Assembly (NCBI GenBank): GCA_037951105.1
Contig: JBAMJV010007487.1
Coordinates: 124,001-188,000 of the forward strand
Length of the DNA: 64,000 bases
DNA from: Echinarachnius parma
Taxonomy: Eukaryota; Echinodermata; Echinoidea; Clypeasteroida; Echinarachniidae
Direction of reading: 5' to 3'
This document shows positions 1 to 62,727 of this stretch, piece by piece. Position 1 is the stretch's first letter, and each line of letters opens with the position of its first letter. The translations under genes and the position numbers were made by a program. A model generated the notes under the pieces. The model saw nothing but the letters and a program-made list of their open reading frames with translations, had not been told where the DNA came from and ran no database searches.

Positions 1-1222
1 TGAACTAAAAAAGAGAAAGAAGTTTGATTTTCACTTATTTTTACATTGTCCAATTATTTAATATAATTTGGATTAGGGTAACAGAAAAAAACTCTAGATG
101 TGTAAATCAGTACATAAGGTAGAAATAATTTTGAAATTTCTTGCAATGACATATATTGTACTTTTCTATTGTGAGAAAAGAAATGTGCTGAACTTTTTAT
201 GAACTAAAAGAAAGAAGATCTATATTTCAAAATACCATTTTTTAGCTTGGTGAGAAAAGAGACGTACAATTCTGAACTTTGGGGATAAACACATTTTAAA
301 GACAAATCTGTAAGTTTCCCTAAATAAACTGAAAGTGATTAATTTGCTTGGTGATATTTATATTTATCCTTAATCATTTGGTAATGTACTAAAGAATATA
401 TACTTTTGGATGTTTTTTTTTTGTTTATACGTTTTCTTCTCTTTCTCAGAAAACCCCAAACATGACCAGAATAACAATTAACCTTTTACTCCAAAATTCC
501 AATACCAACAGAATAGAAACACAATTCATTTTAAAGCATTCATTACATTTGACATATTACTGAACCTGGGTTATATCATTGTTAATTAAATGATTTACAA
601 AATTAATAAAATGGGGGTCTTCGCTTTCGATCCTATTATAAATAACTCACCACATATCAAATATGATGCAATTCTTACTGGTCAAATTCTTGAATGAAAT
701 ACAGAGTAAAATAAAATTCAGTGCATTGTGAGAAAAGTGTGACTCTAAAATGAACTTAATGCATGATTTACGCTCTATAGTTTTGTTTAAAAATAGATGG
801 TATCTGTATGGGGTCCACCCTTAAATAAAACTAAGGCTCTGTGACTAATCAAATAGAGAAAACAAAAGCTATACAATATTTGTTATAAGTTTGACACAGG
901 CATACATTCTAACCACCAAGAGGGCACTGAATAGAATACTATGTGCATAGGTTAGACAGTATACTAGTACTTAGCTTATTCACGCTAGAAATTTAGAATA
1001 AATTCACAAATAGGTACTTGTTTTTCTATGATTTGTAGCTAAATCATTTGAATAATTTCACTTAATTAATATTCTTAAAAAAAGAGATTAAAGAAAAAAA
1101 AACATTAAATATTAATAGAGTTAGAAACATGTAGTAGGAAAAAATTTATAAATATAACTTTAATGTGAATTTGGACTGTTTTAATTGTATAAGCTAAGGG
1201 TACATGTAGGTAGTTTGAATGT
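1..1222. other. AT-rich non-coding DNA upstream of the non-LTR element
   Basis: No convincing gene is seen. The first 300 bases contain degenerate repeats of a theme reading roughly GTGAGAAAAGA followed by GAACT (near 170, 250 and 726). Part of this stretch may be the 5' untranslated region of the retrotransposon that follows, but no 5' boundary or target-site duplication could be recognised. Confidence 0.4.
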
Positions 1223-1234
1223 GTGTTTGTAGTG

Positions 1235-4200
1235 ATGTATGAATCTTGTAAGCATTGTAGATCTCTTCAATCTATATCTTCTACTCAGTCTTTATGTACA
1301 AAATGTTTATCGAACATATTCCCTTTTAATCATATTATTGACAATAATGAATATCTTTGGTCAGTGTATAGTTTCTTTCATCTCAATCACAATATTGATA
1401 TAGAAAGGATTCAAAGATTGAGAGTTAATCCCTTTGAGTTGAATAAATTGGAGCAAAATGATTTTCTTGATATTATAAATGATGACAATGTTCAATACAT
1501 TTCTTGTGGCGCAAGCAGTTATATATTTCCTGAAGATTTTTATGAAAAGTTCAAGAGCCATCAAGATTATTTTTCAGTGATGCATTTGAATACTAGAAGC
1601 TTGTGCAAAAATTTTGATAACTTACAAATATTATTGGCATCACTTAAATATAATTTTGATATTATAGGTATAAGTGAAACATGGTTTAATTGTAACACTC
1701 ATTTGGAAATGTACAATATAGAAAATTATTCCTTGGTTCAAGTTTGTAGATCAGATAAAATTGGAGGGGGTGTTGCTATATATGTGAAAAATGGAATTAA
1801 CTACTCTATTCGTAATGACTTATCTTTTTGCTCACCAGAGTTAGAGGTAATCTTTATTGAAGTGAAAGGTTTGGAAAATAAATTTAAAGTTTTTGGCTGT
1901 GTTTATAGACCCCCTAATACTAATGTATCAAGTTTTAATGACAAACTAAATACATGTCTATGTGTGCTAGAAAAAGAAAAGAAAGACATAATGTTGATGG
2001 GTGATTATAATATTGACTTGCTTCATCATCAATCTCATGATAAGACAAATGAGTTTTTAGAAACTATGTTCTCTTATAATATGTACCCACTAATTTCAAA
2101 GCCTACACGCATTACCGCAAGATCTTGCACCTTAATAGATAATATATTTATAAATACTTTTCATGAAAATGTACAAACTGGTTTATTATATACGGATATT
2201 TCCGATCATTTTCCTATATTTTGTTTGGTAAAGATGGATAGATCAGTACAACAGCAATGTAATAATAATGTTAAAAAAAGGGTAATCACTGATACAAAGA
2301 TACAAGAATTTAAGACGAGATTAGCCAAGACTGATTGGTCAGCAATTTATATGAATCATGATACTAATGCAAGTTATAATTATTTCATAAAAACTTTTAC
2401 TATGTTGTATGACGATTGTTTTCCATTTAAAGAGCAAATAAATGTTAAACGCAAACCTAAGAAACCTTGGATATCAAATAGTCTATTAGTGTCAATTAAA
2501 AAGAAAAATCGTCTTTATATGGCATATTTACACAAACCAAGTGATACATCTAGGATCAAATATACTTTGTATAAAAATATGTTGACTACTCTTGTAAGAA
2601 ATAGTAAAAAACAATATTTTTATGACCTTTTTTCAAAGTGTAAAGGAAATATGAAAAAGACATGGAATAATATTAATGATGTACTAGGTAATAAGAAACA
2701 AAATGTTATACCGAATGAAATGTACTTAGGTAAAGATAAATATTCTTCACGCGAACAGATTGTTCAAGAGTTTAACTCTTACTTTGTTAATATAGGTCAG
2801 AAACTATCAAATTCAATTCCATGTGTACCTAATTCTTTTAAGAAATATTTAAGTTCAGATTATGTCAATAGTTTGTTTTTGAAACCAGCTACGGTTCATG
2901 AGTTGACAGAACTTTGTACATCACTAGACCCAGCTAAAGCGTGTGGTTGTGATGATATTTCTGCCAAAGTAGTCAAAGAATCAATCTTTTGTTTTGTAGA
3001 CCCTTTGTGCAATATATTCAATAAATCAATTTCCTCTGGGGTATTTCCGGATTCTTTGAAAGTAGCTAAAGTTGTACCATTATATAAAAAGAAATGTAAA
3101 CAAAATATTGATAATTATAGGCCTGTTGCCATTTTGTCAATTTTCTCTAAATTATTGGAAAAAGTTATGTATAGTAGATTATTTAGTTTTCTTGAAAAAT
3201 ATGAAATTTTAATTAATGAACAATTTGGGTTCAGAAAAAAACACTCAACTGCACATGGGGTCTTGAATTTGTCTAATTATGTTATAAATGAATTGGATAA
3301 AGGTAACTTTTGTTTAGGATTATTTATGGACCTGTCAAAAGCATTTGACACCATCGACCACCACATTCTTCTTGATAAATTATGTTATTATGGCGTGCGA
3401 GGTGTAGCACAAAACTGGTTCAGATCATATCTGACTGGTAGAAAACAGTATGTGGTGGTCGATGGTGTCAATTCTGAGCTTAAAGACCTATCATGTGGTG
3501 TACCTCAAGGTTCTGTTTTGGGACCTCTCCTGTTCCTTATTTATGTAAATGACATTATTAATAGTTCAAAGATTTTTCGGTTTTCTTTATTTGCAGATGA
3601 CACTGTAATTGTACTATCCCATAAGAATGTGCATACACTTATTTCAATGGTTAACTTAGAATTAAGTAAAATAGTTTCTTGGTTTCAAAATAACAAATTG
3701 CATCTTAATTATGAAAAAACAAATTATATTATATTTCGTTCAAAAAACAGGAGAGTTCCACCCAACCTTGATTCCATATCTATCCAAAATACATCCCTCC
3801 AATGTGTTCAATCATTATCTTTTCTCGGGGTTATTATTGATGAATTCTTAAGTTGGAAGGCTCATGTAAAGAATGTTACTTTGAAGGTATCAAGAGGTGT
3901 TGGAATACTATCAAAATTAAAATATATCGTCCCCCAAAATGTATTAATGCTACTTTATAATTCAATAATACTACCACACTTATCATATTGCAACATTGTG
4001 TGGGGAAACTCTTATTTATCTCATTTAAATAAAATAAAATTGTTACAAAAGAAGGCTATTAGAATCATAACAAATTCAGAGTATAATTGTTCTAGTAATC
4101 CCTTATTTATTAATATGAAAGTTCTTCCAATACAGCAACTTATAACGCTTAATACCCTCATATTTATGTATAATTTCCATACTGGTCATCTCCCGCTCAT

Positions 4201-4429
4201 ATTTAAAACTTTGTTTGTAATTAATTCATCTGTTCATCCTCACAACACAAGACAAACAATGTTATTACATAAGCCTCCTGTACGTACAACTCATGCTCTT
4301 AATTCATTTCAAAATGTGGGAATAAGCAAATGGAATAATCTCAGCTCCAATATAAGATCCAGTACAACTTTGACAAGATTTAAGAAATTGTGTAAAAGTG
4401 AATTGTTTACAATTTTATCATCTAATTGA
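1235..4429 (+). CDS. Non-LTR retrotransposon endonuclease / reverse transcriptase polyprotein
   Basis: The protein cuts target DNA and copies the element RNA at the nick (target-primed reverse transcription). I start at the ATG at 1235, giving 1064 residues. The open frame reaches back to 1223 only through a GTG, and a stop lies at 1211. The N-terminus has a CX2CX12CX2C cysteine pattern followed by an IFPFNHI segment, which looks like the end of a PHD-type zinc finger. Next comes an exonuclease-endonuclease-phosphatase domain (roughly residues 112-335), with MHLNTRSL, ISETW, YRPP, MGDYNID and SDHFPIF motifs. The reverse transcriptase (about 560-860) shows DNYRPVAIL, FMDLSKAFDTIDHH, GVPQGSVLGPLLF and the catalytic FADD box. 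A C-terminal region with a YNIVW-like segment ends the protein. No frameshift or internal stop is present. The family group is confident; the exact clade (Crack, Daphne, L2 or CR1) is not. Confidence 0.88.
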   Translation: MYESCKHCRSLQSISSTQSLCTKCLSNIFPFNHIIDNNEYLWSVYSFFHLNHNIDIERIQRLRVNPFELNKLEQNDFLDIINDDNVQYISCGASSYIFPEDFYEKFKSHQDYFSVMHLNTRSLCKNFDNLQILLASLKYNFDIIGISETWFNCNTHLEMYNIENYSLVQVCRSDKIGGGVAIYVKNGINYSIRNDLSFCSPELEVIFIEVKGLENKFKVFGCVYRPPNTNVSSFNDKLNTCLCVLEKEKKDIMLMGDYNIDLLHHQSHDKTNEFLETMFSYNMYPLISKPTRITARSCTLIDNIFINTFHENVQTGLLYTDISDHFPIFCLVKMDRSVQQQCNNNVKKRVITDTKIQEFKTRLAKTDWSAIYMNHDTNASYNYFIKTFTMLYDDCFPFKEQINVKRKPKKPWISNSLLVSIKKKNRLYMAYLHKPSDTSRIKYTLYKNMLTTLVRNSKKQYFYDLFSKCKGNMKKTWNNINDVLGNKKQNVIPNEMYLGKDKYSSREQIVQEFNSYFVNIGQKLSNSIPCVPNSFKKYLSSDYVNSLFLKPATVHELTELCTSLDPAKACGCDDISAKVVKESIFCFVDPLCNIFNKSISSGVFPDSLKVAKVVPLYKKKCKQNIDNYRPVAILSIFSKLLEKVMYSRLFSFLEKYEILINEQFGFRKKHSTAHGVLNLSNYVINELDKGNFCLGLFMDLSKAFDTIDHHILLDKLCYYGVRGVAQNWFRSYLTGRKQYVVVDGVNSELKDLSCGVPQGSVLGPLLFLIYVNDIINSSKIFRFSLFADDTVIVLSHKNVHTLISMVNLELSKIVSWFQNNKLHLNYEKTNYIIFRSKNRRVPPNLDSISIQNTSLQCVQSLSFLGVIIDEFLSWKAHVKNVTLKVSRGVGILSKLKYIVPQNVLMLLYNSIILPHLSYCNIVWGNSYLSHLNKIKLLQKKAIRIITNSEYNCSSNPLFINMKVLPIQQLITLNTLIFMYNFHTGHLPLIFKTLFVINSSVHPHNTRQTMLLHKPPVRTTHALNSFQNVGISKWNNLSSNIRSSTTLTRFKKLCKSELFTILSSN

Positions 4430-29207: not shown

Positions 29208-29840
29208 GACCCCGTTTACAGTGAGAAAAAGGCAGGGCCGGGCCAGGCCCGGGCCAGGCCGCGGCCGAGTTGGCCCCGCAATTTTGTGCGTTTACAGTGC
29301 GAGGCCAGGCCGCGGCCTACATTGTAACCTTCCAATATTTTGTCGTAGTGGCGCTCTGCATGTAAACAAACGATTATTTTGGGGGGCGCGCCGGGGGTCA
29401 CAGTGTAGATCCGGTCGCGCGCGCGCGGGATATTTCCAATGAATCTTTTCCCCAATTCCCTATGTTTATGCATGTTAAATGCACGGCGAACTTTCGAATA
29501 TCACAGCTGCCCGTACCTAATATAATAATTGATTAATCTTTGTTCTACCCTACAACACGAGAATATGGACGAGGAAGATCGACCGAAGAAAATACCATGA
29601 AAGCGTGGGTTCGATTGTTATGGTACGGCGTCATTATCCTATGACGTAATGATCCTTTCACTTCCGGGGTAACAGTTGGCCCCGCAATTGGCCGCGCAAT
29701 TGGCCCCGGTGCGTTTACAGTGAGAAAAGGCTGGGCCAGGCCGAGGCCGAGACTACCTCCAGAGCTGGTCCAAATGCGCGGCCAGTTTGGCCTCGCAATT
29801 GGCCGCGCAATTGGCCCCGGTGCGTTTACAGTGCGGGGTC
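29208..29840. mobile_element. GC-rich Harbinger-like inverted-repeat element, complete copy
   Basis: A 633 bp element starting GACCCCGTTTACAGTG and ending CAGTGCGGGGTC, flanked by a 3 bp TAA duplication (29205-29207 and 29841-29843). A 3 bp TWA duplication is typical of PIF/Harbinger. The word GCGTTTACAGTG or CGTTTACAGTG recurs four times, near both ends and inside, which could serve as transposase sites. The interior is very rich in GGCC palindromes. No transposase is encoded. Confidence 0.7.
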
Positions 29841-30318: not shown

Positions 30319-30322
30319 ATAA
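30319..30322 (+). other. Target-site duplication of LTR element, left
   Basis: ATAA precedes the left LTR and follows the right LTR at 36762-36765. If the last A of the right LTR is counted as target instead, the duplication is AATAA (5 bp). Both lengths fit Ty3/gypsy elements. Confidence 0.6.
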
Positions 30323-32074
30323 TGTAGCACCCATGTGGAACCCCTCCATGGTTGCTAATGTGTTCATTAATTGCTTTATAAGTTAGGAGTATTTATATTA
30401 ATATGTTTGTGATATTGGGAATAAGTTTTGTTGTAATACACTTTAAATGTATCCTACAGAGCCTATGATGGGAATCGGTACAGGAAATGGACAAGGGATT
30501 TATTTGGCTCTTAATTTAATAAATTGTAACTCCTAGTTTTATGTCTTTAAGCCGCTATTAAGGAGTGTTTGGATTACTTTAATGACCCAAGGAGCTAGGC
30601 TTTGTAGGTTATTGGATAAAGGATAATTAAGCTTTTCATTTAGCACTTGGGTTTATTGTTAATTAGGGATTAAGATACTATTATGGAGAAAGCCTGGCTT
30701 GGTGCTTTATGTTTATATTGGTGTTTATTAACAGCTTGCCCTGGGGAAATTATGCAGGAGGCATAGTTTATTTGACTTTTGATTTAGGCTGAAAGAGGGT
30801 CCCCTTTGTCTTTAAAATTATGTTTGATAATATACTTGTTAGGTTGCATAAGCATTTCCTGTAGGGGCGGGGCTTATACATTACACCTCCCAAAAGTAGC
30901 TTTGGCCAATAGTAATTAGTTTAGGTCACCTCTTTCTAGTAATAAAATATTTAGTCCAATCATGTGATAATAAGGAACCCTTCCCCCCTATGATGTACAG
31001 GAATATCATTTCCATAGGGCCATGTAGTTAAGGATCCATATAAAAGAGAATGTAATAGGTAATTAATGATGAGTCACACGAACAGCAAAGGAATAGAAAG
31101 GTAGTCGTAATCAGGAGCAGTTAGCTCTCATCCCACCCAAGTTTCCCGTCATCTACCATCCTCATCAAACTAATTACTAACCAAGAAATATCGACAACTT
31201 ATTTGGACACTTCTTTGAACCATCGGAAACTAGATTGAAAGGAGAACTTTACGCCGAGAATAATATATTGGAAGCTACAAATTCAAGGAGTGAACTTTAG
31301 CCCAAGAAGCAAACCATTATTGCTCGTGGCTCACTGGATCATTTTAGCAACAAACTAGTTGCCACTTTTGTGCCAAGGAGTCCCAGGCCATTCCCGCATT
31401 TTCCCGTCCAGAAGGTGCCCAGCCAGTAACCAGCCCCGTCCCGACGTCGAGCCCGAAGTCGCCCACGTCCTCGAGCCGTCGCACCATCCCAGCCCATCAG
31501 GAAGCGCATCCGAAACCGACATAACAGTATAGCTAAGTGGCCACCATTTACTAATTTCATTTTCCCTAACATATCCCTTCCCTTCCCCCTATGACCTTGA
31601 TATAAGCATTTAGTAGTAAGTTAAGTAGGTATTGTTTTGATCCTTACCGTTAAGGAACGTTTGGCAATAATATTTATTGCAACTAGTATTTAAGTCTGTA
31701 AATTATATAAGTTTGTGTTAGTTGAAATTGATTGAGATGGGATTTGTAATCCCAACATGCATCTTTGTAAATAATAATTAACATTGGCATTCCACTGAAA
31801 TATTATGCTTTATTCGATCGCTTTATTATTGTTGTTGGTGGCGTTTGTAAAGGTGAGTCAGGCTGGTGAGATGGTGGTTGTGGTGGTCTATGTATGAGTT
31901 GATGTGACCAGTTGGCATTGAACCTTAGTGTATTAGCTATCGAAAAGAACGGACCAATAAAACACTCCACCTCCGTTTACATGGAACCTACATTTCATGT
32001 AGATGCGAGGCGGATGTCCTAACCCCCAATTATTAGGATTACATAATATCTCTCTATTTGGGTGGTGGGTTGCA
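30323..32074 (+). repeat. Left LTR (1752 bp)
   Basis: Runs from TGTAGCACCC to GGTGGGTTGCA. It contains a TATA box at 31039 and a possible poly(A) signal AATAAA at 31956. From these, the transcript would begin near 31070 and the R region would be about 900 bp. A 77-codon antisense open frame at 31339-31572 (repeated in the other LTR) has no recognisable similarity. Confidence 0.92.
31039..31046 (+). promoter_or_regulatory. TATA box in the left LTR
   Basis: TATAAAAG within CCATATAAAAGAGA. It is about 715 bp into the LTR, with a matching copy at 35726-35733 in the right LTR. It probably directs transcription of the element from near 31070. Confidence 0.5.
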
Positions 32075-32513
32075 CGGAACTCATGACCTTATTTTATGCG
32101 TTTAAATCAGCACCATATTTTTGATAGTTATTTGAAGAAATTTTTTATATTTTTGTATTAGTATTATAGTTAATTGGTTCGATGTCGACTGGTCCAAAAT
32201 AAAAAAAATAACTGCCTTCTTATCATGCCTGACAAGCCTCAACAAATTATTTTGTAGGAATTGATAGTATGTGCTCGTCCAATCTCAGCATTAGGTATAT
32301 GTTTTTGTGTATCATCTTTGCTAATTTTGTTTAATGAATGTTCTTTAATTGTACTGAATTTGAGTTGTGTTCCTTGATTAACATATTGACTTTAATTAGA
32401 CGAGATGGCAAACTCAATAGACGACTGCACAGTCGCTTTGAAGCTTTTGATGCATATTTGCATAGGGCCGCAAAGTATATAGTGATAATGTAATTGATAG
32501 GACCATAATTATA
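32075..32513 (+). other. Leader region of the LTR element
   Basis: The sequence follows the left LTR as CGGAACTCATGACC and is AT-rich. A primer-binding site would be expected at its start, but no clear match to a tRNA 3' end beginning TGG is seen. No gag is present. Confidence 0.5.
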
Positions 32514-33404
32514 ATGGGGTTCGAATCCCAAGACCTCCCCCCATCACTTCGCTGCACAGGGACTGTTAAATGGTTCCACGTGAAGAAAGGATACGGTTTC
32601 ATAACATTGCCTGTGCCTGGTGTCCAAGATGTTTTTATTCATTGGTCAGACATTAGTCTAAATAATCCTAACAAAAGGCAACGAAGTGTTGGGGATGGAG
32701 AGCTTGTGGAGTTTGATTTAGTTACAAATGAGAAAGGCCAGAAAGGAATGAATGTGACGGGACCTAACTTTACACACGTCCAGGGTAGCAGGTATGCCAG
32801 AGATGGGCGTCGACGTCGTCCCCGCAACAAACGGCGACGACGACGACATCGATCCAACTGCGCATACCGAGACCCAATTACACTCTCTCCCTCCCAGCCA
32901 ATCTCTACCCCATTCGCTCAATTTGAACAGGAGAATGTGGAGGATACAGGTATTTTGTTTTGGGACGCACCCCCACCCACTGACGTGGATAGCCCCCTCC
33001 CCCAGGAAATGCATTGTGATGCAGTTGCTGATGCAGTTAGTGAGGAAAGTGAGATTGATGAGAATGAGCAGATTGCTCCTGATGAAAATGATAATGTAGA
33101 GGAAGTTGAACAAATAGAAGAAGTCGGTGATTTGATAATATTTGATGATGAGCCTAGCGGTTCTGATTTATTGTTGATTGAAGATGACCACTATGTCAGA
33201 CGTTCACACAGACCGTCTATACCCCCTGATAGGTTAACATATTATCAGAACCAGTCTTCGGTTCCCACCCCTCATGTGCAGGATTGTCCGCAGGTGCGCC
33301 ACACGTCTGAGTTCAGGCGTGCATTAGGATTGCTACAAATTAATCTCTTCGCATTGTGCCAGTGGCCCAGTCGGGCAAGTAGAAATAGGATTGTCGAACT
33401 TTGA
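32514..33404 (+). CDS. Y-box-type cold-shock domain protein carried by an LTR retrotransposon
   Basis: A single-exon ORF of 296 residues. Residues 15-84 form a cold-shock domain: GTVKWFHVKKGYGFI with the RNP1 motif (25-30), VFIHWS as RNP2 (40-45), then NNPNKRQRSVGDGELVEFD and NVTGPN. VQGSRYA (89-95) follows, as in animal Y-box proteins just after the domain. This places it with the YBX family rather than bacterial CspA or Lin28. Residues 97-113 are almost pure Arg/Lys/Pro. An acidic region (about 174-227) leads to YVRRSHRPSIPPDRLTYY (227-244), which resembles the C-terminal tail of gypsy Pol proteins. The start is the ATG at 32514, with A at -3 and G at +4. Cold-shock domains bind single-stranded RNA and DNA, so binding the element's own transcript is plausible but inferred. 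Absence of introns suggests capture through mRNA. Confidence 0.85.
   Translation: MGFESQDLPPSLRCTGTVKWFHVKKGYGFITLPVPGVQDVFIHWSDISLNNPNKRQRSVGDGELVEFDLVTNEKGQKGMNVTGPNFTHVQGSRYARDGRRRRPRNKRRRRRHRSNCAYRDPITLSPSQPISTPFAQFEQENVEDTGILFWDAPPPTDVDSPLPQEMHCDAVADAVSEESEIDENEQIAPDENDNVEEVEQIEEVGDLIIFDDEPSGSDLLLIEDDHYVRRSHRPSIPPDRLTYYQNQSSVPTPHVQDCPQVRHTSEFRRALGLLQINLFALCQWPSRASRNRIVEL
32518..32529 (+). promoter_or_regulatory. tRNA B-box-like sequence GGTTCGAATCCC
   Basis: A perfect match to the T-arm/B-box of tRNA genes, overlapping codons 2-6 of the ORF. No A box or cloverleaf is seen upstream, so this is either chance or a scar of a tRNA-derived sequence at the capture junction. Confidence 0.3.
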
Positions 33405-34969
33405 ATGGCCCGTGCTAATTTTGCAATTAGCCAGCAACTTAATTGCTGGTTTGTGAAATTGTCATATTGAGCCATATAGATATTGTTGTTTAGATATGTA
33501 GGACTATATTACATGTGTCCTCAGCGATGATTTTGATATTTTGTGAGTTTATGTTTTTAAGACTCGCGGTAACGTAGCTCTAGTAAATAGTAGCTTTATT
33601 TAAGTGCATTTTGTGATACACTATTGAATTAATTATTGGTTTGGAGAAAATTCTATACAGAAATTTCTGTGCATGCATTTCCCTTGTTATAATGGTATGT
33701 TGCCATGATCGTTTTGATATGGTTTACTATTAGGAACTTTTTGTTGGATAAGTCATAACGTGTCCACTGTAAGTGTTTTAATTATGTTATTATTAGGTAA
33801 ACATCTCCAGTTACGAGCTGCGACTTGTTTTGGTTTGAAGGGACCTCATCCCTTCATGTGCATTATGAATATATTATATAGGCCTTTGTAACCTTTGAGT
33901 TTGTATTGCCATTTTTGTTTAGTTATGGAAAATATGGTACAGGGTACATATTTAGTGATAGTCTAATTAATGTGGTTAACTTTTTTTGAAGTCTTAATTG
34001 TTGCCGCTTGATTGAGAGATAAATGTATGGAATATTAGGCAGTGTGATAATCAGGGAATTGCGCACTAGCCGGGATTAATTTTAGAGTTAGAATAAGCTC
34101 GGGAAGTTGGGAACTTCGATATTGATATGATTTAGCTTAGGAGACATGCAGGAGTATACCTCTCTTTGAATACATGGGTACATTAATTGTTGCCAATCTT
34201 TGCATTATTTTTAAAAGTGATATTATCTTGTCGCTAAGAGACAAGTCTTGATTGAATCGCTTTTTAGTTAATATAGTCATTTATAATTAAGGGATTTGTT
34301 TTCTCTTTTATGCCTGCATTGTGAATTTGTGGGAATCAAATTGTTAAGTTTTAGAAAGACAACAAGAGACACTTTCTTACTTAAATTTTGCATCTGAATG
34401 ATACTTTTGTTTTTGTTTATTTTATTTGTGACTTCTTGAAAGTCGCATTTTGTTGTAATTTGATTCACGCCGAAGCAGTTTAAATGTTATTATGTTATTA
34501 TTTTTGCCTTTATATAATTTGATTTGATTTGATTTTTGTTTATTACGGCTAGATTCACTCTGAGGTTAATTCGATATATTTCACTTTCGTTTTTGTTGAT
34601 GTTTATTTGAAAGCCCGTTTGTAACATTCCATTAATTAGTTATTTGTGACGTTATACATTTCGTTTGTTGCAGTGACACAGATAAACAATATCACCGATA
34701 CATGTTCGGCTTATGAATAGTTATATGAAACATTGGTAATAAGAATTTTGTTTGTTTGAAAAAGACTGAGAACGGACGTAGTGAGCACTAGTAGGTAGAT
34801 TTGCCACTCTTTTTGTTTTTATTTTATAATTTGTCTAATATCTTTTGATGATTTGTTTATATTTAACCTCATTTAATCGCTGTATCATATCTGTAGGGTG
34901 GATGCCAATCCATGTAAATGTATTTATGCTAGTAATTATTGATATTTGTAATTTATGTGGGCACATAAT
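33405..34969 (+). other. 3' non-coding part of the LTR element
   Basis: About 1.6 kb of AT-rich sequence without coding frames or recognisable Pol remnants. It may be the 3' untranslated region of the captured gene or degraded element sequence. Confidence 0.5.
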
Positions 34970-35009
34970 TTAAATTTCGGGGACGAAATTTCCCTGGAGG
35001 GAGGGTAGA
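34970..35009 (+). other. Pre-LTR motif and polypurine tract
   Basis: TTTAAATTTCGGGGACGAAA is followed by TTTCCCTGGAGGGAGGGTAGA, which abuts the right LTR. The GGGGACGAAATTT motif before a purine tract is frequent in Ty3/gypsy elements. The purine tract primes plus-strand DNA synthesis. Confidence 0.65.
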
Positions 35010-36761
35010 TGTAGCACCCATGTGGAACCCCTCCATGGTTGCTAATGTGTTCATTAATTGCTTTATAAGTTAGGAGTATTTATATTAATATGTTTGTGAT
35101 ATTGGGAATAAGTTTTGTTGTAATACACTTTAAATGTATCCTACAGAGCCTATGATGGGAATCGGTACAGGAAATGGACAAGGGATTTATTTGGCTCTTA
35201 ATTTAATAAATTGTAACTCCTAGTTTTATGTCTTTAAGCCGCTATTAAGGAGTGTTTGGATTACTTTAATGACCCAAGGAGCTAGGCTTTGTAGGTTATT
35301 GGATAAAGGATAATTAAGCTTTTCATTTAGCACTTGGGTTTATTGTTAATTAGGGATTAAGATACTATTATGGAGAAAGCCTGGCTTGGTGCTTTATGTT
35401 TATATTGGTGTTTATTAACAGCTTGCCCTGGGGAAATTATGCAGGAGGCATAGTTTATTTGACTTTTGATTTAGGCTGAAAGAGGGTCCCCTTTGTCTTT
35501 AAAATTATGTTTGATAATATACTTGTTAGGTTGCATAAGCATTTCCTGTAGGGGCGGGGCTTATACATTACACCTCCCAAAAGTAGCTTTGGCCAATAGT
35601 AATTAGTTTAGGTCACCTCTTTCTAGTAATAAAATATTTAGTCCAATCATGTGATAATAAGGAACCCTTCCCCCCTATGATGTACAGGAATATCATTTCC
35701 ATAGGGCCATGTAGTTAAGGATCCATATAAAAGAGAATGTAATAGGTAATTAATGATGAGTCACACGAACAGCAAAGGAATAGAAAGGTAGTCGTAATCA
35801 GGAGCAGTTAGCTCTCATCCCACCCAAGTTTCCCGTCATCTACCATCCTCATCAAACTAATTACTAACCAAGAAATATCGACAACTTATTTGGACACTTC
35901 TTTGAACCATCGGAAACTAGATTGAAAGGAGAACTTTACGCCGAGAATAATATATTGGAAGCTACAAATTCAAGGAGTGAACTTTAGCCCAAGAAGCAAA
36001 CCATTATTGCTCGTGGCTCACTGGATCATTTTAGCAACAAACTAGTTGCCACTTTTGTGCCAAGGAGTCCCAGGCCATTCCCGCATTTTCCCGTCCAGAA
36101 GGTGCCCAGCCAGTAACCAGCCCCGTCCCGACGTCGAGCCCGAAGTCGCCCACGTCCTCGAGCCGTCGCACCATCCCAGCCCATCAGGAAGCGCATCCGA
36201 AACCGACATAACAGTATAGCTAAGTGGCCACCATTTACTAATTTCATTTTCCCTAACATATCCCTTCCCTTCCCCCTATGACCTTGATATAAGCATTTAG
36301 TAGTAAGTTAAGTAGGTATTGTTTTGATCCTTACCGTTAAGGAACGTTTGGCAATAATATTTATTGCAACTAGTATTTAAGTCTGTAAATTATATAAGTT
36401 TGTGTTAGTTGAAATTGATTGAGATGGGATTTGTAATCCCAACATGCATCTTTGTAAATAATAATTAACATTGGCATTCCACTGAAATATTATGCTTTAT
36501 TCGATCGCTTTATTATTGTTGTTGGTGGCGTTTGTAAAGGTGAGTCAGGCTGGTGAGATGGTGGTTGTGGTGGTCTATGTATGAGTTGATGTGACCAGTT
36601 GGCATTGAACCTTAGTGTATTAGCTATCGAAAAGAACGGACCAATAAAACACTCCACCTCCGTTTACATGGAACCTACATTTCATGTAGATGCGAGGCGG
36701 ATGTCCTAACCCCCAATTATTAGGATTACATAATATCTCTCTATTTGGGTGGTGGGTTGCA
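35010..36761 (+). repeat. Right LTR (1752 bp)
   Basis: It has the same length as the left LTR and no difference was seen by eye. Its TATA box is at 35726 and its candidate AATAAA signal is at 36643, where transcripts would be processed. Confidence 0.92.
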
Positions 36762-37086
36762 ATAACAACAACAATACCGTAATCATAATGCTAGATCTTA
36801 AATAGTTTGTAATATTCTTTTCCCCTCTTTTCCCCCTCCCCCCCCCCTTCACATTCCATCAGCTCACTATGAAAGGGGTATAAATCTCACAGTTTGAGGG
36901 TAAACATGACACGATTCATGAACAGTTCAAGGCATACAAGAGTAAAACAACAAAACAATGAAGTTAGTGACTTTATAGGATTATCCTAGATTATTCGACA
37001 GGACTGAATTTTAAAAGCAGACAATTTATAAATAGATTGAACATGAAATAGCGTGTGAATGTAACTAGTGTGCATAAATCCATAGA
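36762..37086. other. No recognisable gene
   Basis: Begins with the ATAA target duplication and an AAC-rich stretch. Otherwise AT-rich and featureless. Confidence 0.4.
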
Positions 37087-60164: not shown

Positions 60165-60193
60165 TTTCGGCTGTCGTCTACAGCCTTCGTCAG
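60165..60193 (-). ncRNA. Hammerhead-ribozyme-like core
   Basis: On the minus strand CTGACGA is followed by a perfect 6 bp stem (GGCTGT/ACAGCC, loop AGACG) and GAAA, the invariant hammerhead core arrangement. GGTCACA upstream can pair with TGTGATC downstream as a distal stem I (one G-U). Stem III is short and unclear. Hammerhead motifs are established in Penelope-like elements. The TGA stop of the ORF (60190-60192) lies inside CTGACGA. Confidence 0.6.
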
Positions 60194-62643
60194 CGATGTG
60201 ACCCGACTTGACCTTTCGTGACGTAACGATCGATCAACGGGTCATAGACATTCGGTAGCTTGTATCGCCCCCCGTCTCGGTTCAGTGAAGGTTGAAAGGC
60301 CCGGATGTAGATTGCTTCCTTCACCCCTCTCTCGAAGTATCGAGCCTCCCTGTCCAAGATGCTGACCTCTTTCAAGTCTACTTGATGGCCAGGAGACTCG
60401 ATATGGATGTGTTGTGAAACCTCCGATGCATACGAGCTGGGGCGTCGATGTTCCAGAAACCTTGTTTTGAGTGATCGCTCTGTTTCTCCGATGTATGATT
60501 CCTTGCAGATGCCTTTCGTTGTCTGTCCTTGGCAAGGAATCATATACACCACCCCCGTAGCGTTCTTCTTCTCGGTCTTGTCTTTCGGAGCTACTAAGAA
60601 TTGGCGTAGTGTTCGAGTTGGTTTGAACGAAACTCTAATGCCAACTTTATTGAAGTTCCGTCGAAGAGCTTCCGAGATGCCCTTGATGTAGGGAAGAACC
60701 ACGTGTCCTTTTGGAGGTTGAGTGTCTTTCCTGGCCGGTTCACCCTCCGTTGGCTTTTGGCGTTTGTTGAAAGCCCAACGAGGGTAACCGCACTTGGAGA
60801 GAGCTTTAGTGATGTGTTCTTTCTCTTTCTTGACAGTCAGAGGATCAGTGATTACGGTCTCAGCACGGTGGAACAAAGTACGGATAACTCCTAATTTATG
60901 TTCTAGTGGGTGATTGGAAGTGAAGTTGAGGTATTGATCGGTGTGGGTGGGTTTCCGGTAAATCTGAATGTCCAAACTACCGTCGGGCTTGATCACTGTG
61001 GACGTGTCGAGGAATGCTAGCGACCTGTCTTCCTCACCTTCAGTAGTGAACTTGATGTCCGGGTCAATCGAGTTCAGATGTTCAGTGAACTCATCTGCGA
61101 ACTCTTTCTTGAGTTTTGTGTGCGTGTCGTCCACGTAGCGGTACCACCAAATCGGTGGATGGGGGGCAGTGTTGATGGCTATCTCCTCAAAGTGTTCCAT
61201 ATACAGGTTACATACAATGGGAGAAACCGGCGAACCCATTGCTGCTCCATGAATCTGTTGATAGAAGACGCCATCGTAGACGAAGTACGTGCACCGTAAG
61301 CATACTTCTAGGAGTTGGACAATGTGGTTTACGGTGATTCGAGTCCTATCCTTGAGAGTGTTGTCCTCTTCTAGTTTAGATTTGATAATCTGTAGTGCTT
61401 TGTCAATCGGAACAGAGGTGAACAGTGCGGTCACATCATACGAACGAAGTTCTTCGTCTTCCTCCACTCGTTCACTCTTAATCGCTTCTGCAAACGTCTG
61501 AGAGTTGGCAACGTGATGGCATGTCTTGCCCACGAGAGGGGATAGAATATCCGATAGATGTTTAGCACATTGATAAGTTATGGAGCCAATACTGCTTACA
61601 ATCGGACGGAGCGGAATGTCAGGCTTATGAACTTTCGGTAAACCATAGAACTTTGGAGGGTTTTCTGTTGTGGGGTAGAGTTTGCGGTATTCATCTCTGT
61701 TGATACCTCCTTCATTTTCTATGTCTTGTAACACTTTAACCAGTTCCTTCTTGTATTTCTGTGTCGGGTCTCTCTTGCCTAGGTTTTTGTAGGTAACGCT
61801 ATCTTTGAGTAAAAGTTCACATTTCTTTTTGTATTCAACTGTGTCCAAAACTACTGCTAATCTACCCTTGTCTGCCGGTAAAATGCGAATATCTTTGTCT
61901 TTCTTCAAATCATCGAGGGCTTTAATCTCCTCTTTACTCAAATTCGAGTCAAGTTTCTTCGGGCGGTTAAGCAAGCCCGCTACTTTTGAACGTAATTCAT
62001 GAGCAGTACGATCGGGTAACTTACGGCACGCTGTCTCTGTGCTGGTGATGATGTCTACCACTGGAACCTCGGTTGGAGCGACGGAAAAATTCAGTCCCTT
62101 GGCTAAAACGGAGAGTTCTGGGTCGTTGAGCAAACGTTGAGAACAGTTTTTCACCCATTTACCGATGCAATCCGATGCTAAGTTGTTGTTTGACCGCGAT
62201 TGACGTTCAGTTTCTTTCCCCAACAGCCGTGTGAATTTGTCCTGTTGTCGTGTTTTCGATAACTCGTGTTCCCTGACCTGTGACCTTTCCACGCGCGATT
62301 TGACTTCCGCTATGGTGGCGTTAGGTAACTCCCCGCGAATAAAAATGTCATCTTCGAGACGATTTTTATTTTGATCAAGTACATTTAACTTCCCAACGAT
62401 TTGTCCGATTCTAACATTCAATAAGTCCTTTTCCGCTCGTCGTAAAATGTTATTCGCTTTTGGTCCCTTAACCGTGCTGGACAAATGTAAACTGGCCGGA
62501 GTTACATAGTGGTGCTTGCAATGTAGACTGAAGCGTAAGTGGTTGCGATATCGGGCGATCTTTTGCCCCGTTTTCTCCAAATGTCTAATGTTGTCAAGGC
62601 AATCCTTGCCGTAATCACGTCTAATATTACTATGAAAGTTCAT
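60190..62643 (-). CDS. Penelope-like reverse transcriptase with GIY-YIG endonuclease
   Basis: An intact 817-residue protein that primes reverse transcription at a target cut by its own nuclease. A basic N-terminal region (about 1-330) precedes the reverse transcriptase: KFYGLPKVHKPD (331-342) and LRPIVSS, SYDVTALFTSVP with the catalytic D403, HGAAMGSPVSP (465-475), and the YVDD box at 503-506. FLDTSTV and YRKPTHTDQYLNF follow. The C-terminal GIY-YIG domain spans about 696-790: GVVYMIPC, YIGETERSL, conserved arginine near 728, EAIYIRAFQPSLN with Glu776 and Asn788. Cys704/Cys713 and nearby histidines could form the small zinc site seen in animal Penelope elements. The start is the ATG at 62643, eight bases after TACCAATACAG. 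The length is typical of the family, with no frameshift. Confidence 0.93.
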   Translation of the reverse strand: MNFHSNIRRDYGKDCLDNIRHLEKTGQKIARYRNHLRFSLHCKHHYVTPASLHLSSTVKGPKANNILRRAEKDLLNVRIGQIVGKLNVLDQNKNRLEDDIFIRGELPNATIAEVKSRVERSQVREHELSKTRQQDKFTRLLGKETERQSRSNNNLASDCIGKWVKNCSQRLLNDPELSVLAKGLNFSVAPTEVPVVDIITSTETACRKLPDRTAHELRSKVAGLLNRPKKLDSNLSKEEIKALDDLKKDKDIRILPADKGRLAVVLDTVEYKKKCELLLKDSVTYKNLGKRDPTQKYKKELVKVLQDIENEGGINRDEYRKLYPTTENPPKFYGLPKVHKPDIPLRPIVSSIGSITYQCAKHLSDILSPLVGKTCHHVANSQTFAEAIKSERVEEDEELRSYDVTALFTSVPIDKALQIIKSKLEEDNTLKDRTRITVNHIVQLLEVCLRCTYFVYDGVFYQQIHGAAMGSPVSPIVCNLYMEHFEEIAINTAPHPPIWWYRYVDDTHTKLKKEFADEFTEHLNSIDPDIKFTTEGEEDRSLAFLDTSTVIKPDGSLDIQIYRKPTHTDQYLNFTSNHPLEHKLGVIRTLFHRAETVITDPLTVKKEKEHITKALSKCGYPRWAFNKRQKPTEGEPARKDTQPPKGHVVLPYIKGISEALRRNFNKVGIRVSFKPTRTLRQFLVAPKDKTEKKNATGVVYMIPCQGQTTKGICKESYIGETERSLKTRFLEHRRPSSYASEVSQHIHIESPGHQVDLKEVSILDREARYFERGVKEAIYIRAFQPSLNRDGGRYKLPNVYDPLIDRYVTKGQVGSHR

Positions 62644-62727
62644 CTGTATTGGTAGTTAATATGAAATCTATTTTAAACTTTTGATCACAATACAAATATT
62701 TACCTCCGAAATGTTTTTATTTTTTTT

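What the first reader, a model, noticed from the sequence alone, without database searches (positions are those of the whole stretch)
30323..36761. LTR retrotransposon that has captured a Y-box (cold-shock) gene
The interior of a complete LTR element has no Gag or Pol and instead one 296-codon ORF with a eukaryotic Y-box-type cold-shock domain. The domain includes RNP1, RNP2, the NNP-K--RSVGDGE-VEFD segment and the following VQGS-YA. Transduction of host genes is known for retroviruses and some LTR elements, but I know of no Y-box case. A single-stranded nucleic-acid binder could package, mask or promote translation of element RNA, so the cargo may serve the element. The matching LTRs indicate recent activity.
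Basis: partly seen in the sequence, partly recalled or inferred. Interest (0 to 1): 0.92.

Follow-up and report, generated by a model that had tools for sequence, protein, structure and literature searches.

The report
Satellite retrotransposon carrying a Y-box domain
A family of young, non-autonomous retroviral-type jumping genes in an animal genome has replaced almost all of its own genes with an RNA-binding domain of the Y-box kind, fused to the tail of the polymerase protein of the larger element that probably moves it.

Summary
Window 30323-36761 is a complete LTR insertion (identical 1752-bp LTRs, TSD ATAA, PPT). Its 296-aa ORF has a real Y-box cold-shock domain (Pfam 2.5e-17; best PDB match YB-1). 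The window's own 1.2-Gb genome holds at least seven more copies, all with the ORF open; codons 1-97 are identical at DNA level in 8 of 8. At least six longer elements share the LTR, have open Gag and Pol frames and no CSD; one, scanned, shows RRM + PNMA-type capsid + CCHC in Gag and a Ty3/gypsy Pol (no protease recognised): the likely autonomous partner. 'No Gag or Pol' is wrong in one telling respect: the second half of the ORF is the partner's Pol C-terminus, so the cargo is a CSD-Pol-tail chimera. CSD copies have recombined with the partner and with a second LTR lineage (84% LTR identity), the CSD unchanged in 8 of 8. Best reading: a Ty3/gypsy satellite that captured a Y-box domain, is moved in trans, and uses the chimera to favour its own RNA. 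Trans-mobilisation and protein function are inferred, selection on the CSD is weakly supported, and the donor gene was not found (search unanswered). New variant of a known kind (compare Bs1).

The parts
30319..30322 (.). target-site duplication ATAA, left copy
30323..32074 (+). 5' LTR, 1752 bp, TG...CA
   Evidence: identical to the 3' LTR
31039..31044 (+). TATAAA box; transcription start expected about 30 bp on (LTR position ~747, by general rule). The A-to-B switch in the mosaic LTR of copy L013 falls at about this position
31956..31961 (+). AATAAA, one of three in the LTR (30518, 30941, 31956); the only one after the expected transcription start
32075..32091 (+). first 17 bases of the internal region (CGGAACTCATGACCTTA), where the primer binding site should lie; the same in the twelve copies aligned (six CSD copies, six partners; L012 and L013 not in that alignment). 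No standard TGG-type site; primer not identified
32075..32332 (+). leader shared with the partner at 85-87% identity in the three partner copies measured by blastn
   Evidence: all six shown aligned
32405..32479 (+). decayed remnant of the partner's Gag start (MANSIDDCTVALKLL...; partner MANFKGDHTVFLKNL), ends at a stop before the CSD ORF
32333..32948 (+). stretch without blastn match in the partner; contains the Gag remnant and the captured Y-box segment
32514..33404 (+). chimeric ORF, 296 aa: CSD + basic stretch + Pol tail
32550..32804 (+). Y-box-type cold-shock domain (residues 13-97)
32808..32849 (+). arginine-rich stretch after the CSD (residues 99-112)
32949..33404 (+). in-frame C-terminus of the partner's Pol
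33405..35009 (+). 3' non-coding region; 32949-35009 is 99.4-99.5% identical to the partner in the three copies measured
34994..35009 (+). polypurine tract CTGGAGGGAGGGTAGA
   Evidence: same in six of six partner copies
35010..36761 (+). 3' LTR, 1752 bp
36762..36765 (.). target-site duplication ATAA, right copy

Best explanation
A non-autonomous (satellite) Ty3/gypsy LTR retrotransposon in which the region from near the start of Gag to near the end of Pol is replaced by a Y-box cold-shock domain, joined in frame to the last ~150 codons of Pol. Its RNA is made from the LTR promoter, packaged by the PNMA-type Gag of the element with the same LTR and a related leader, and copied and inserted by that element's Pol. 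The CSD-Pol-tail protein is translated and most likely binds the satellite's own RNA, through the CSD and the arginine-rich stretch, while the Pol tail places it with the partner's Pol or particle; this favours the satellite in packaging, RNA stability or reverse transcription. Shown: structure, copies, partner, chimera, recombinant copies, youth. Inferred: capture from a host gene, trans-mobilisation, translation, and what the protein does.
For: Eight complete CSD copies and six complete long copies share the LTR (read by spacing; lower bounds). Gag is open in six of six long copies (431 or 439 aa) and Pol is open in both pieces of six of six, in continuing frame by coordinates. In the one copy scanned: Gag RRM_1, PNMA and CCHC; Pol RT, RNase H, integrase, RT nearest to Ty3 and integrase to Ty3 and PFV. 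The ORF is open in eight of eight CSD copies, with two kinds of junction into Pol, both in frame. The CSD has 0 variable of 291 sites in eight copies, against 10 of 484 in the flanking module (Fisher P 0.016). It keeps 38 of 48 highly conserved Y-box positions against 14 of 39 variable ones (P 6e-5). L014 and L015 carry the same leader and CSD in a different LTR lineage, and L013 has an A/B/A mosaic LTR, as expected if the RNAs share particles. LTR pairs differ at 0, 0, 0, 0, 7, 17, 1 and 2 positions. Precedent: YB-1 depletion lowers HIV-1 virion production through viral RNA metabolism, and YB-1 associates with integrase, direct binding not proven (PMC6040738, abstract); [quoted passage not shown]
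Against: No transcript, protein or mobilisation data. All eight CSD copies descend from one recent module, so open frames and identity may partly reflect youth; the CSD shows no synonymous change either. Four of the six variable leader sites are private to one copy, L011. dN/dS of the CSD cannot be computed; that of the first 75 tail codons is 0.48-0.62 between the two tail types (four comparisons, no test run), over the whole tail 0.13-0.75 (seven comparisons). The predicted transcript has 24 ATGs before the ORF. No protease was recognised in the partner's Pol, by Pfam or by a D[ST]GA motif in the first piece, so full autonomy is not shown. Primer site unidentified.
Confidence: 0.6

Rival explanations
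1. The CSD is a passive passenger. A satellite that moves by its LTRs, leader and 3' end captured a host segment once; the frame is open only because the family is young, and the protein does nothing for the element.
For: CSD codons 1-97 are identical in eight of eight copies, so the module is young. Many non-autonomous LTR elements move without coding (general knowledge). The tail between the two tail types changes at dN/dS 0.48-0.62 over 75 codons.
Against: The CSD is ~40% diverged from the Y-box consensus yet keeps the conserved positions and an open frame; neutral decay to that level gave a stop in 1000 of 1000 simulations, though this divergence could have arisen in the donor gene. The module came through a change of Pol junction and of LTR lineage unchanged and in frame.
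Confidence: 0.27
2. The CSD acts on the host rather than on element RNA: as a truncated Y-box protein it interferes with host Y-box or small-RNA control of germline messages, so that element RNA is translated or escapes silencing.
For: A CSD without the normal Y-box C-terminal domain, a layout that could act as a competitor (inference).
Against: Does not explain the fusion to a Pol tail kept in eight of eight copies.
Confidence: 0.08
3. The loci are an assembly artefact or a host gene with LTRs around it.
For: Only one assembly was available.
Against: Eight copies on eight contigs; six with perfect TSDs of six different sequences; partner copies with the same LTR and 3' region.
Confidence: 0.02

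Closest known systems
Bs1 of maize (LTR element with transduced host gene segments)
   Same: LTR element with captured host coding segments that gave a chimeric, translated gene (PMC13317346, passages); that its ORF also holds element coding sequence is recalled.
   Different: Other host genes (proton ATPase, xylan endohydrolase, glucanase segments); here one nucleic-acid-binding domain is fused to the Pol C-terminus, at least eight complete copies exist, and a partner with open Gag and Pol and the same LTR is at hand.
Ty3/gypsy (Metaviridae) elements with PNMA-type Gag
   Same: The partner has an RRM-type N-terminal domain, PNMA-like capsid, CCHC knuckle and Ty3-like RT and IN. A putative RNA-binding domain at the N-terminus of the PNMA family is described in PMC11011659 (one passage).
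   Different: The satellite keeps only a decayed Gag start and the Pol tail, and has a CSD.
Y-box proteins (YBX1/2/3, yps)
   Same: CSD with RNP motifs and Y-box-type loop; basic stretch after it.
   Different: 45-61% identical to the 124 CSD segments compared (from the 120 listed of 1163 hits); by far the longest branch of that tree (2.93); only 12 residues before the CSD, and a Pol tail in place of the Y-box C-terminal domain.
LARD/TRIM-type non-autonomous LTR derivatives
   Same: LTRs, leader and PPT kept, Gag-Pol lost.
   Different: Those are classically non-coding (recalled); this one keeps an open chimeric ORF.

Membership tests
LTR retrotransposon insertion | direct LTRs with TG...CA, target-site duplication, PPT | tested here: met
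   4-bp TSD in 6 of 8 CSD copies, not in L010 and L012
LTR retrotransposon insertion | tRNA primer binding site after the 5' LTR | tested here: inconclusive
   first 17 internal bases shared by the twelve copies aligned, but no TGG-type site; primer not identified
Ty3/gypsy family (through the partner) | Pol order RT-RNase H-integrase, Ty3-like | tested here: met
   in one partner copy; the CSD copies themselves carry only the Pol tail
Ty3/gypsy family (through the partner) | aspartic protease in Pol | tested here: inconclusive
   no Pfam match and no D[ST]GA in the first Pol piece of the one copy scanned; a diverged protease is not excluded
Non-autonomous satellite of that family | same LTR and cis-acting ends as an element with open Gag and Pol | tested here: met
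Non-autonomous satellite of that family | mobilised in trans by the partner | not testable with these tools
   inferred from shared ends and recombinants
Host-gene-transducing LTR element (Bs1 kind) | interior coding sequence homologous to a cellular gene | tested here: met
Host-gene-transducing LTR element (Bs1 kind) | donor gene identified in the host genome | not tested
   The genome search with the CSD as DNA or protein did not complete
Y-box protein | CSD with RNP1, RNP2 and the Y-box loop NNP.K..RSVGDGE.VEFD | tested here: met
Y-box protein | A/P-rich N-terminus and alternating basic/acidic C-terminal domain (recalled definition) | tested here: not met
   12 residues before the CSD; C-terminal half is Pol tail

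The most novel reading that the evidence does not exclude
A parasite of a retrotransposon has armed itself with a stolen host RNA chaperone: by fusing a Y-box domain to the tail of Pol, beyond integrase, it makes a protein that marks its own RNA for the partner's particle and so outcompetes the partner (eight complete CSD copies against six complete partner copies found, both lower bounds).
Probability: 0.33. Interest if true: 0.87.

Novelty: new variant of a known kind. Interest (0 to 1): 0.73.

Why it matters
Host YB-1 is a reported helper of retroviruses (PMC6040738, PMC4486188), yet the literature searches made here (listings, judged by title and start of abstract) showed no LTR element carrying its own Y-box domain. 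If the chimera works for the element, this is a natural experiment on how selfish RNAs compete for packaging: partner and satellite share LTR and 3' end and differ mainly by Gag-Pol versus CSD-tail. It also shows a cargo module found in two LTR lineages through recombination, which makes 'does captured cargo help the element?' directly testable by comparing copies.

Tried and rejected
Two insertions around a host gene: rejected (TSDs, eight copies). Bacterial cold-shock protein: rejected; Y-box chains score 76-90 bits, the best bacterial one 44. Remnant Pfam domains in the internal region: none in two plus-strand frames and the part of the third after the ORF; minus frames not scanned. Relatives of ORF residues 97-296 among public proteins: none at E <= 10 of 567 candidates, but only proteins of 0.55-1.75 times the query length are admitted, so full Pol proteins could not appear. 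Viral contigs: no relative of the ORF and no exact match to a PPT-LTR pattern. Rfam: nothing above gathering score in the window; best sub-threshold hit in the element mir-2582, E 0.098, taken as chance. Self-priming (LTR complementary to the primer region): no shared 9-mer or longer. Homology of the residues just before FWDAP to the partner's Pol: not significant (217 of 1000 shuffles as good). CSD tree: element on a branch of 2.93 with no supported neighbour, so no donor lineage is claimed. AlphaFold model of the ORF: mean pLDDT 52, strands within residues 13-82, no secondary structure after residue 86; no fold search made. Host species: not identified; the window's non-LTR ORF matched mostly unnamed contigs.
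Full report
OBSERVATION. The two LTRs (30323-32074, 35010-36761) are identical over 1752 bp, begin TG and end CA, and are flanked by the 4-bp duplication ATAA. A purine tract CTGGAGGGAGGGTAGA ends at the 3' LTR. The LTR holds one TATAAA (31039) and three AATAAA, the last at 31956. The ORF 32514-33404 has a cold-shock domain: Pfam CSD, E 2.5e-17; the best PDB matches are YB-1 and YBX2, aligned through the Y-box-specific loop. First-order Markov versions of the internal region gave no frame of this length in 500 trials.

COPIES AND PARTNER. One genome search was answered. The window is part of contig C7476 of a 1.2-Gb assembly, and a probe of the first 1178 LTR bases gave 44 matches, a lower bound (40 of 111 candidates scored). 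By spacing I read them as eight complete short elements (16 matches), six complete long elements (12), three single LTRs and 13 partial matches; the partial ones were not examined. The seven other short elements were fetched (L009-L015). All seven carry the ORF, open, which with the window makes eight of eight: 296, 296, 396, 294, 292, 396, 286 and 286 aa. LTR pairs differ at 0, 0, 0, 0, 7, 17 (plus 3 gap columns), 1 and 2 positions; six of eight have perfect 4-bp TSDs, all different, while L010 (3 of 4 bases) and L012 do not. Two of the single LTRs have 4-bp duplications (TTTA, TATA) and look like solo LTRs; the third shares its 3' flank with the first of these.

The six long elements (fetched as twelve pieces) have an open Gag (439 aa in five, 431 in one) and a Pol frame open in both pieces and continuing between them by coordinates, in six of six. 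Domains were scanned in one copy: Gag has RRM_1, PNMA and zf-CCHC matches, and Pol has RT, RNase H and integrase; RT is nearest to Ty3 RT (4ol8, 9.2e-65), integrase to Ty3 and PFV, Gag to PNMA2 (1.3e-7). No protease was recognised, so full autonomy is not shown. tblastn of the ORF found no CSD in any of the twelve pieces.

THE CHIMERA. Residues 126-296 of the ORF align with the C-terminus of the partner's Pol in six of six copies (89-90% identity), ending in the same residues and at the stop. At nucleotide level the match starts at internal position 875 (window 32949) and runs to the 3' LTR at 99.4-99.5% in the three pieces compared by blastn; the other three were in reverse orientation and were not searched on that strand. 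Upstream, the leader matches the partner at 85-87% in three copies measured (six aligned), and just before the ORF a decayed Gag start survives (MANSIDDCTVALKLL against MANFKGDHTVFLKNL). So Gag from about codon 15 and Pol up to its last ~150 codons are replaced by a segment holding the CSD and an arginine-rich stretch. In L010 and L013 the join lies further upstream in Pol (FAQFEQ|KNVGVKGKHK), in L010 at a short sequence AGAATGTGG shared by window and partner, and is again in frame. L011, L012, L014 and L015 share a diverged tail type, the last two ending in yet another C-terminus.

RECOMBINATION. L014 and L015 have LTRs about 84% identical to the window's and, from 33323 to the 3' LTR, 71-92% identity per 150-bp bin, but their leader and CSD (bins from 32123 to 32872) are 98-100% identical. 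The module is therefore found in two LTR lineages. L013's 5' LTR is A/B/A mosaic, the first switch near LTR position 750, where transcription should start (TATA plus ~30). Such joins are what strand transfer between co-packaged RNAs would make (inference).

SELECTION. Among the eight copies CSD codons 1-97 have 0 variable of 291 sites; the leader, counted from 32150 to leave out the start where L011 looks recombinant with the partner, has 6 of 361 and codons 98-138 have 4 of 123, gap columns skipped (Fisher P 0.036 for leader alone, 0.016 pooled). This is suggestive, not strong: four of the six leader sites are private to L011, and the CSD also lacks synonymous changes, so youth contributes. 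Against the 120 listed Y-box-type proteins (of 1163 hits) the CSD is 60% identical to consensus, keeps 38 of 48 highly conserved positions and 14 of 39 variable ones (P 6e-5); simulated neutral decay to that level left no stop-free frame in 1000. That divergence may have arisen in the element or in the donor gene; the search that would tell did not complete. Between the two tail types dN/dS over 75 codons is 0.48-0.62 in four comparisons (7-9 synonymous, 19-20 non-synonymous differences; no test run); over whole tails seven comparisons give 0.13-0.75.

MECHANISM. Inferred chain: LTR transcription; translation of the CSD-Pol-tail protein (24 ATGs precede it, so the route is unclear); packaging of satellite RNA in the partner's particle; reverse transcription and integration by the partner. 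The likely role of the protein is to bind satellite RNA and associate with the partner's Pol or particle. [quoted passage not shown] None of this tests the element.

KNOWN KINDS. LTR elements with transduced host segments are known, Bs1 being the classic (PMC13317346, passages). A putative RNA-binding domain in the PNMA family is known (PMC11011659, one passage). Searches for cold-shock or Y-box together with retrotransposon terms, for YB-1 with retroviruses and for captured genes listed nothing of this kind by title and start of abstract; apart from the four papers named here the listed papers were not opened, and the library is open-access only. Filing: a new variant of the transducing, non-autonomous LTR element.

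Noticed in passing
window 1214-4429 (+): Open 1071-aa frame of a non-LTR retrotransposon with endonuclease and reverse transcriptase domains; the four nearest relatives are unnamed ENA proteins at 70-88% identity over 79-100% of the stretch searched.
   Followed up: partly
window 60190-62655 (-): Open 821-aa frame with a weak RVT_1 match (E 3.3e-5, under the curated cut-off); recalled layout suggests a Penelope-like element, not tested.
   Followed up: no
window 29676-29722 and 29787-29833: 47-bp direct repeat (98% identical) just left of the element.
   Followed up: no
L019:525-1838: The partner's Gag starts with an RRM-type domain before a PNMA-like capsid; so the partner encodes one RNA-binding fold and the satellite another.
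   Followed up: partly
window 32514-32529: The start codon of the chimeric ORF sits in ATGGGGTTCGAATCCC, which looks like a tRNA T-arm / Pol III B box (recalled consensus); ARAGORN and Rfam found no tRNA.
   Followed up: partly
L013, 5' LTR positions 1-1752: A/B/A mosaic LTR, first switch near position 750, the predicted transcription start.
   Followed up: yes
window 32540-32570: CTGCACAG directly before GGACTGTTAAATGG (start of the CSD) reads like an intron acceptor; could not be compared with the host gene.
   Followed up: no
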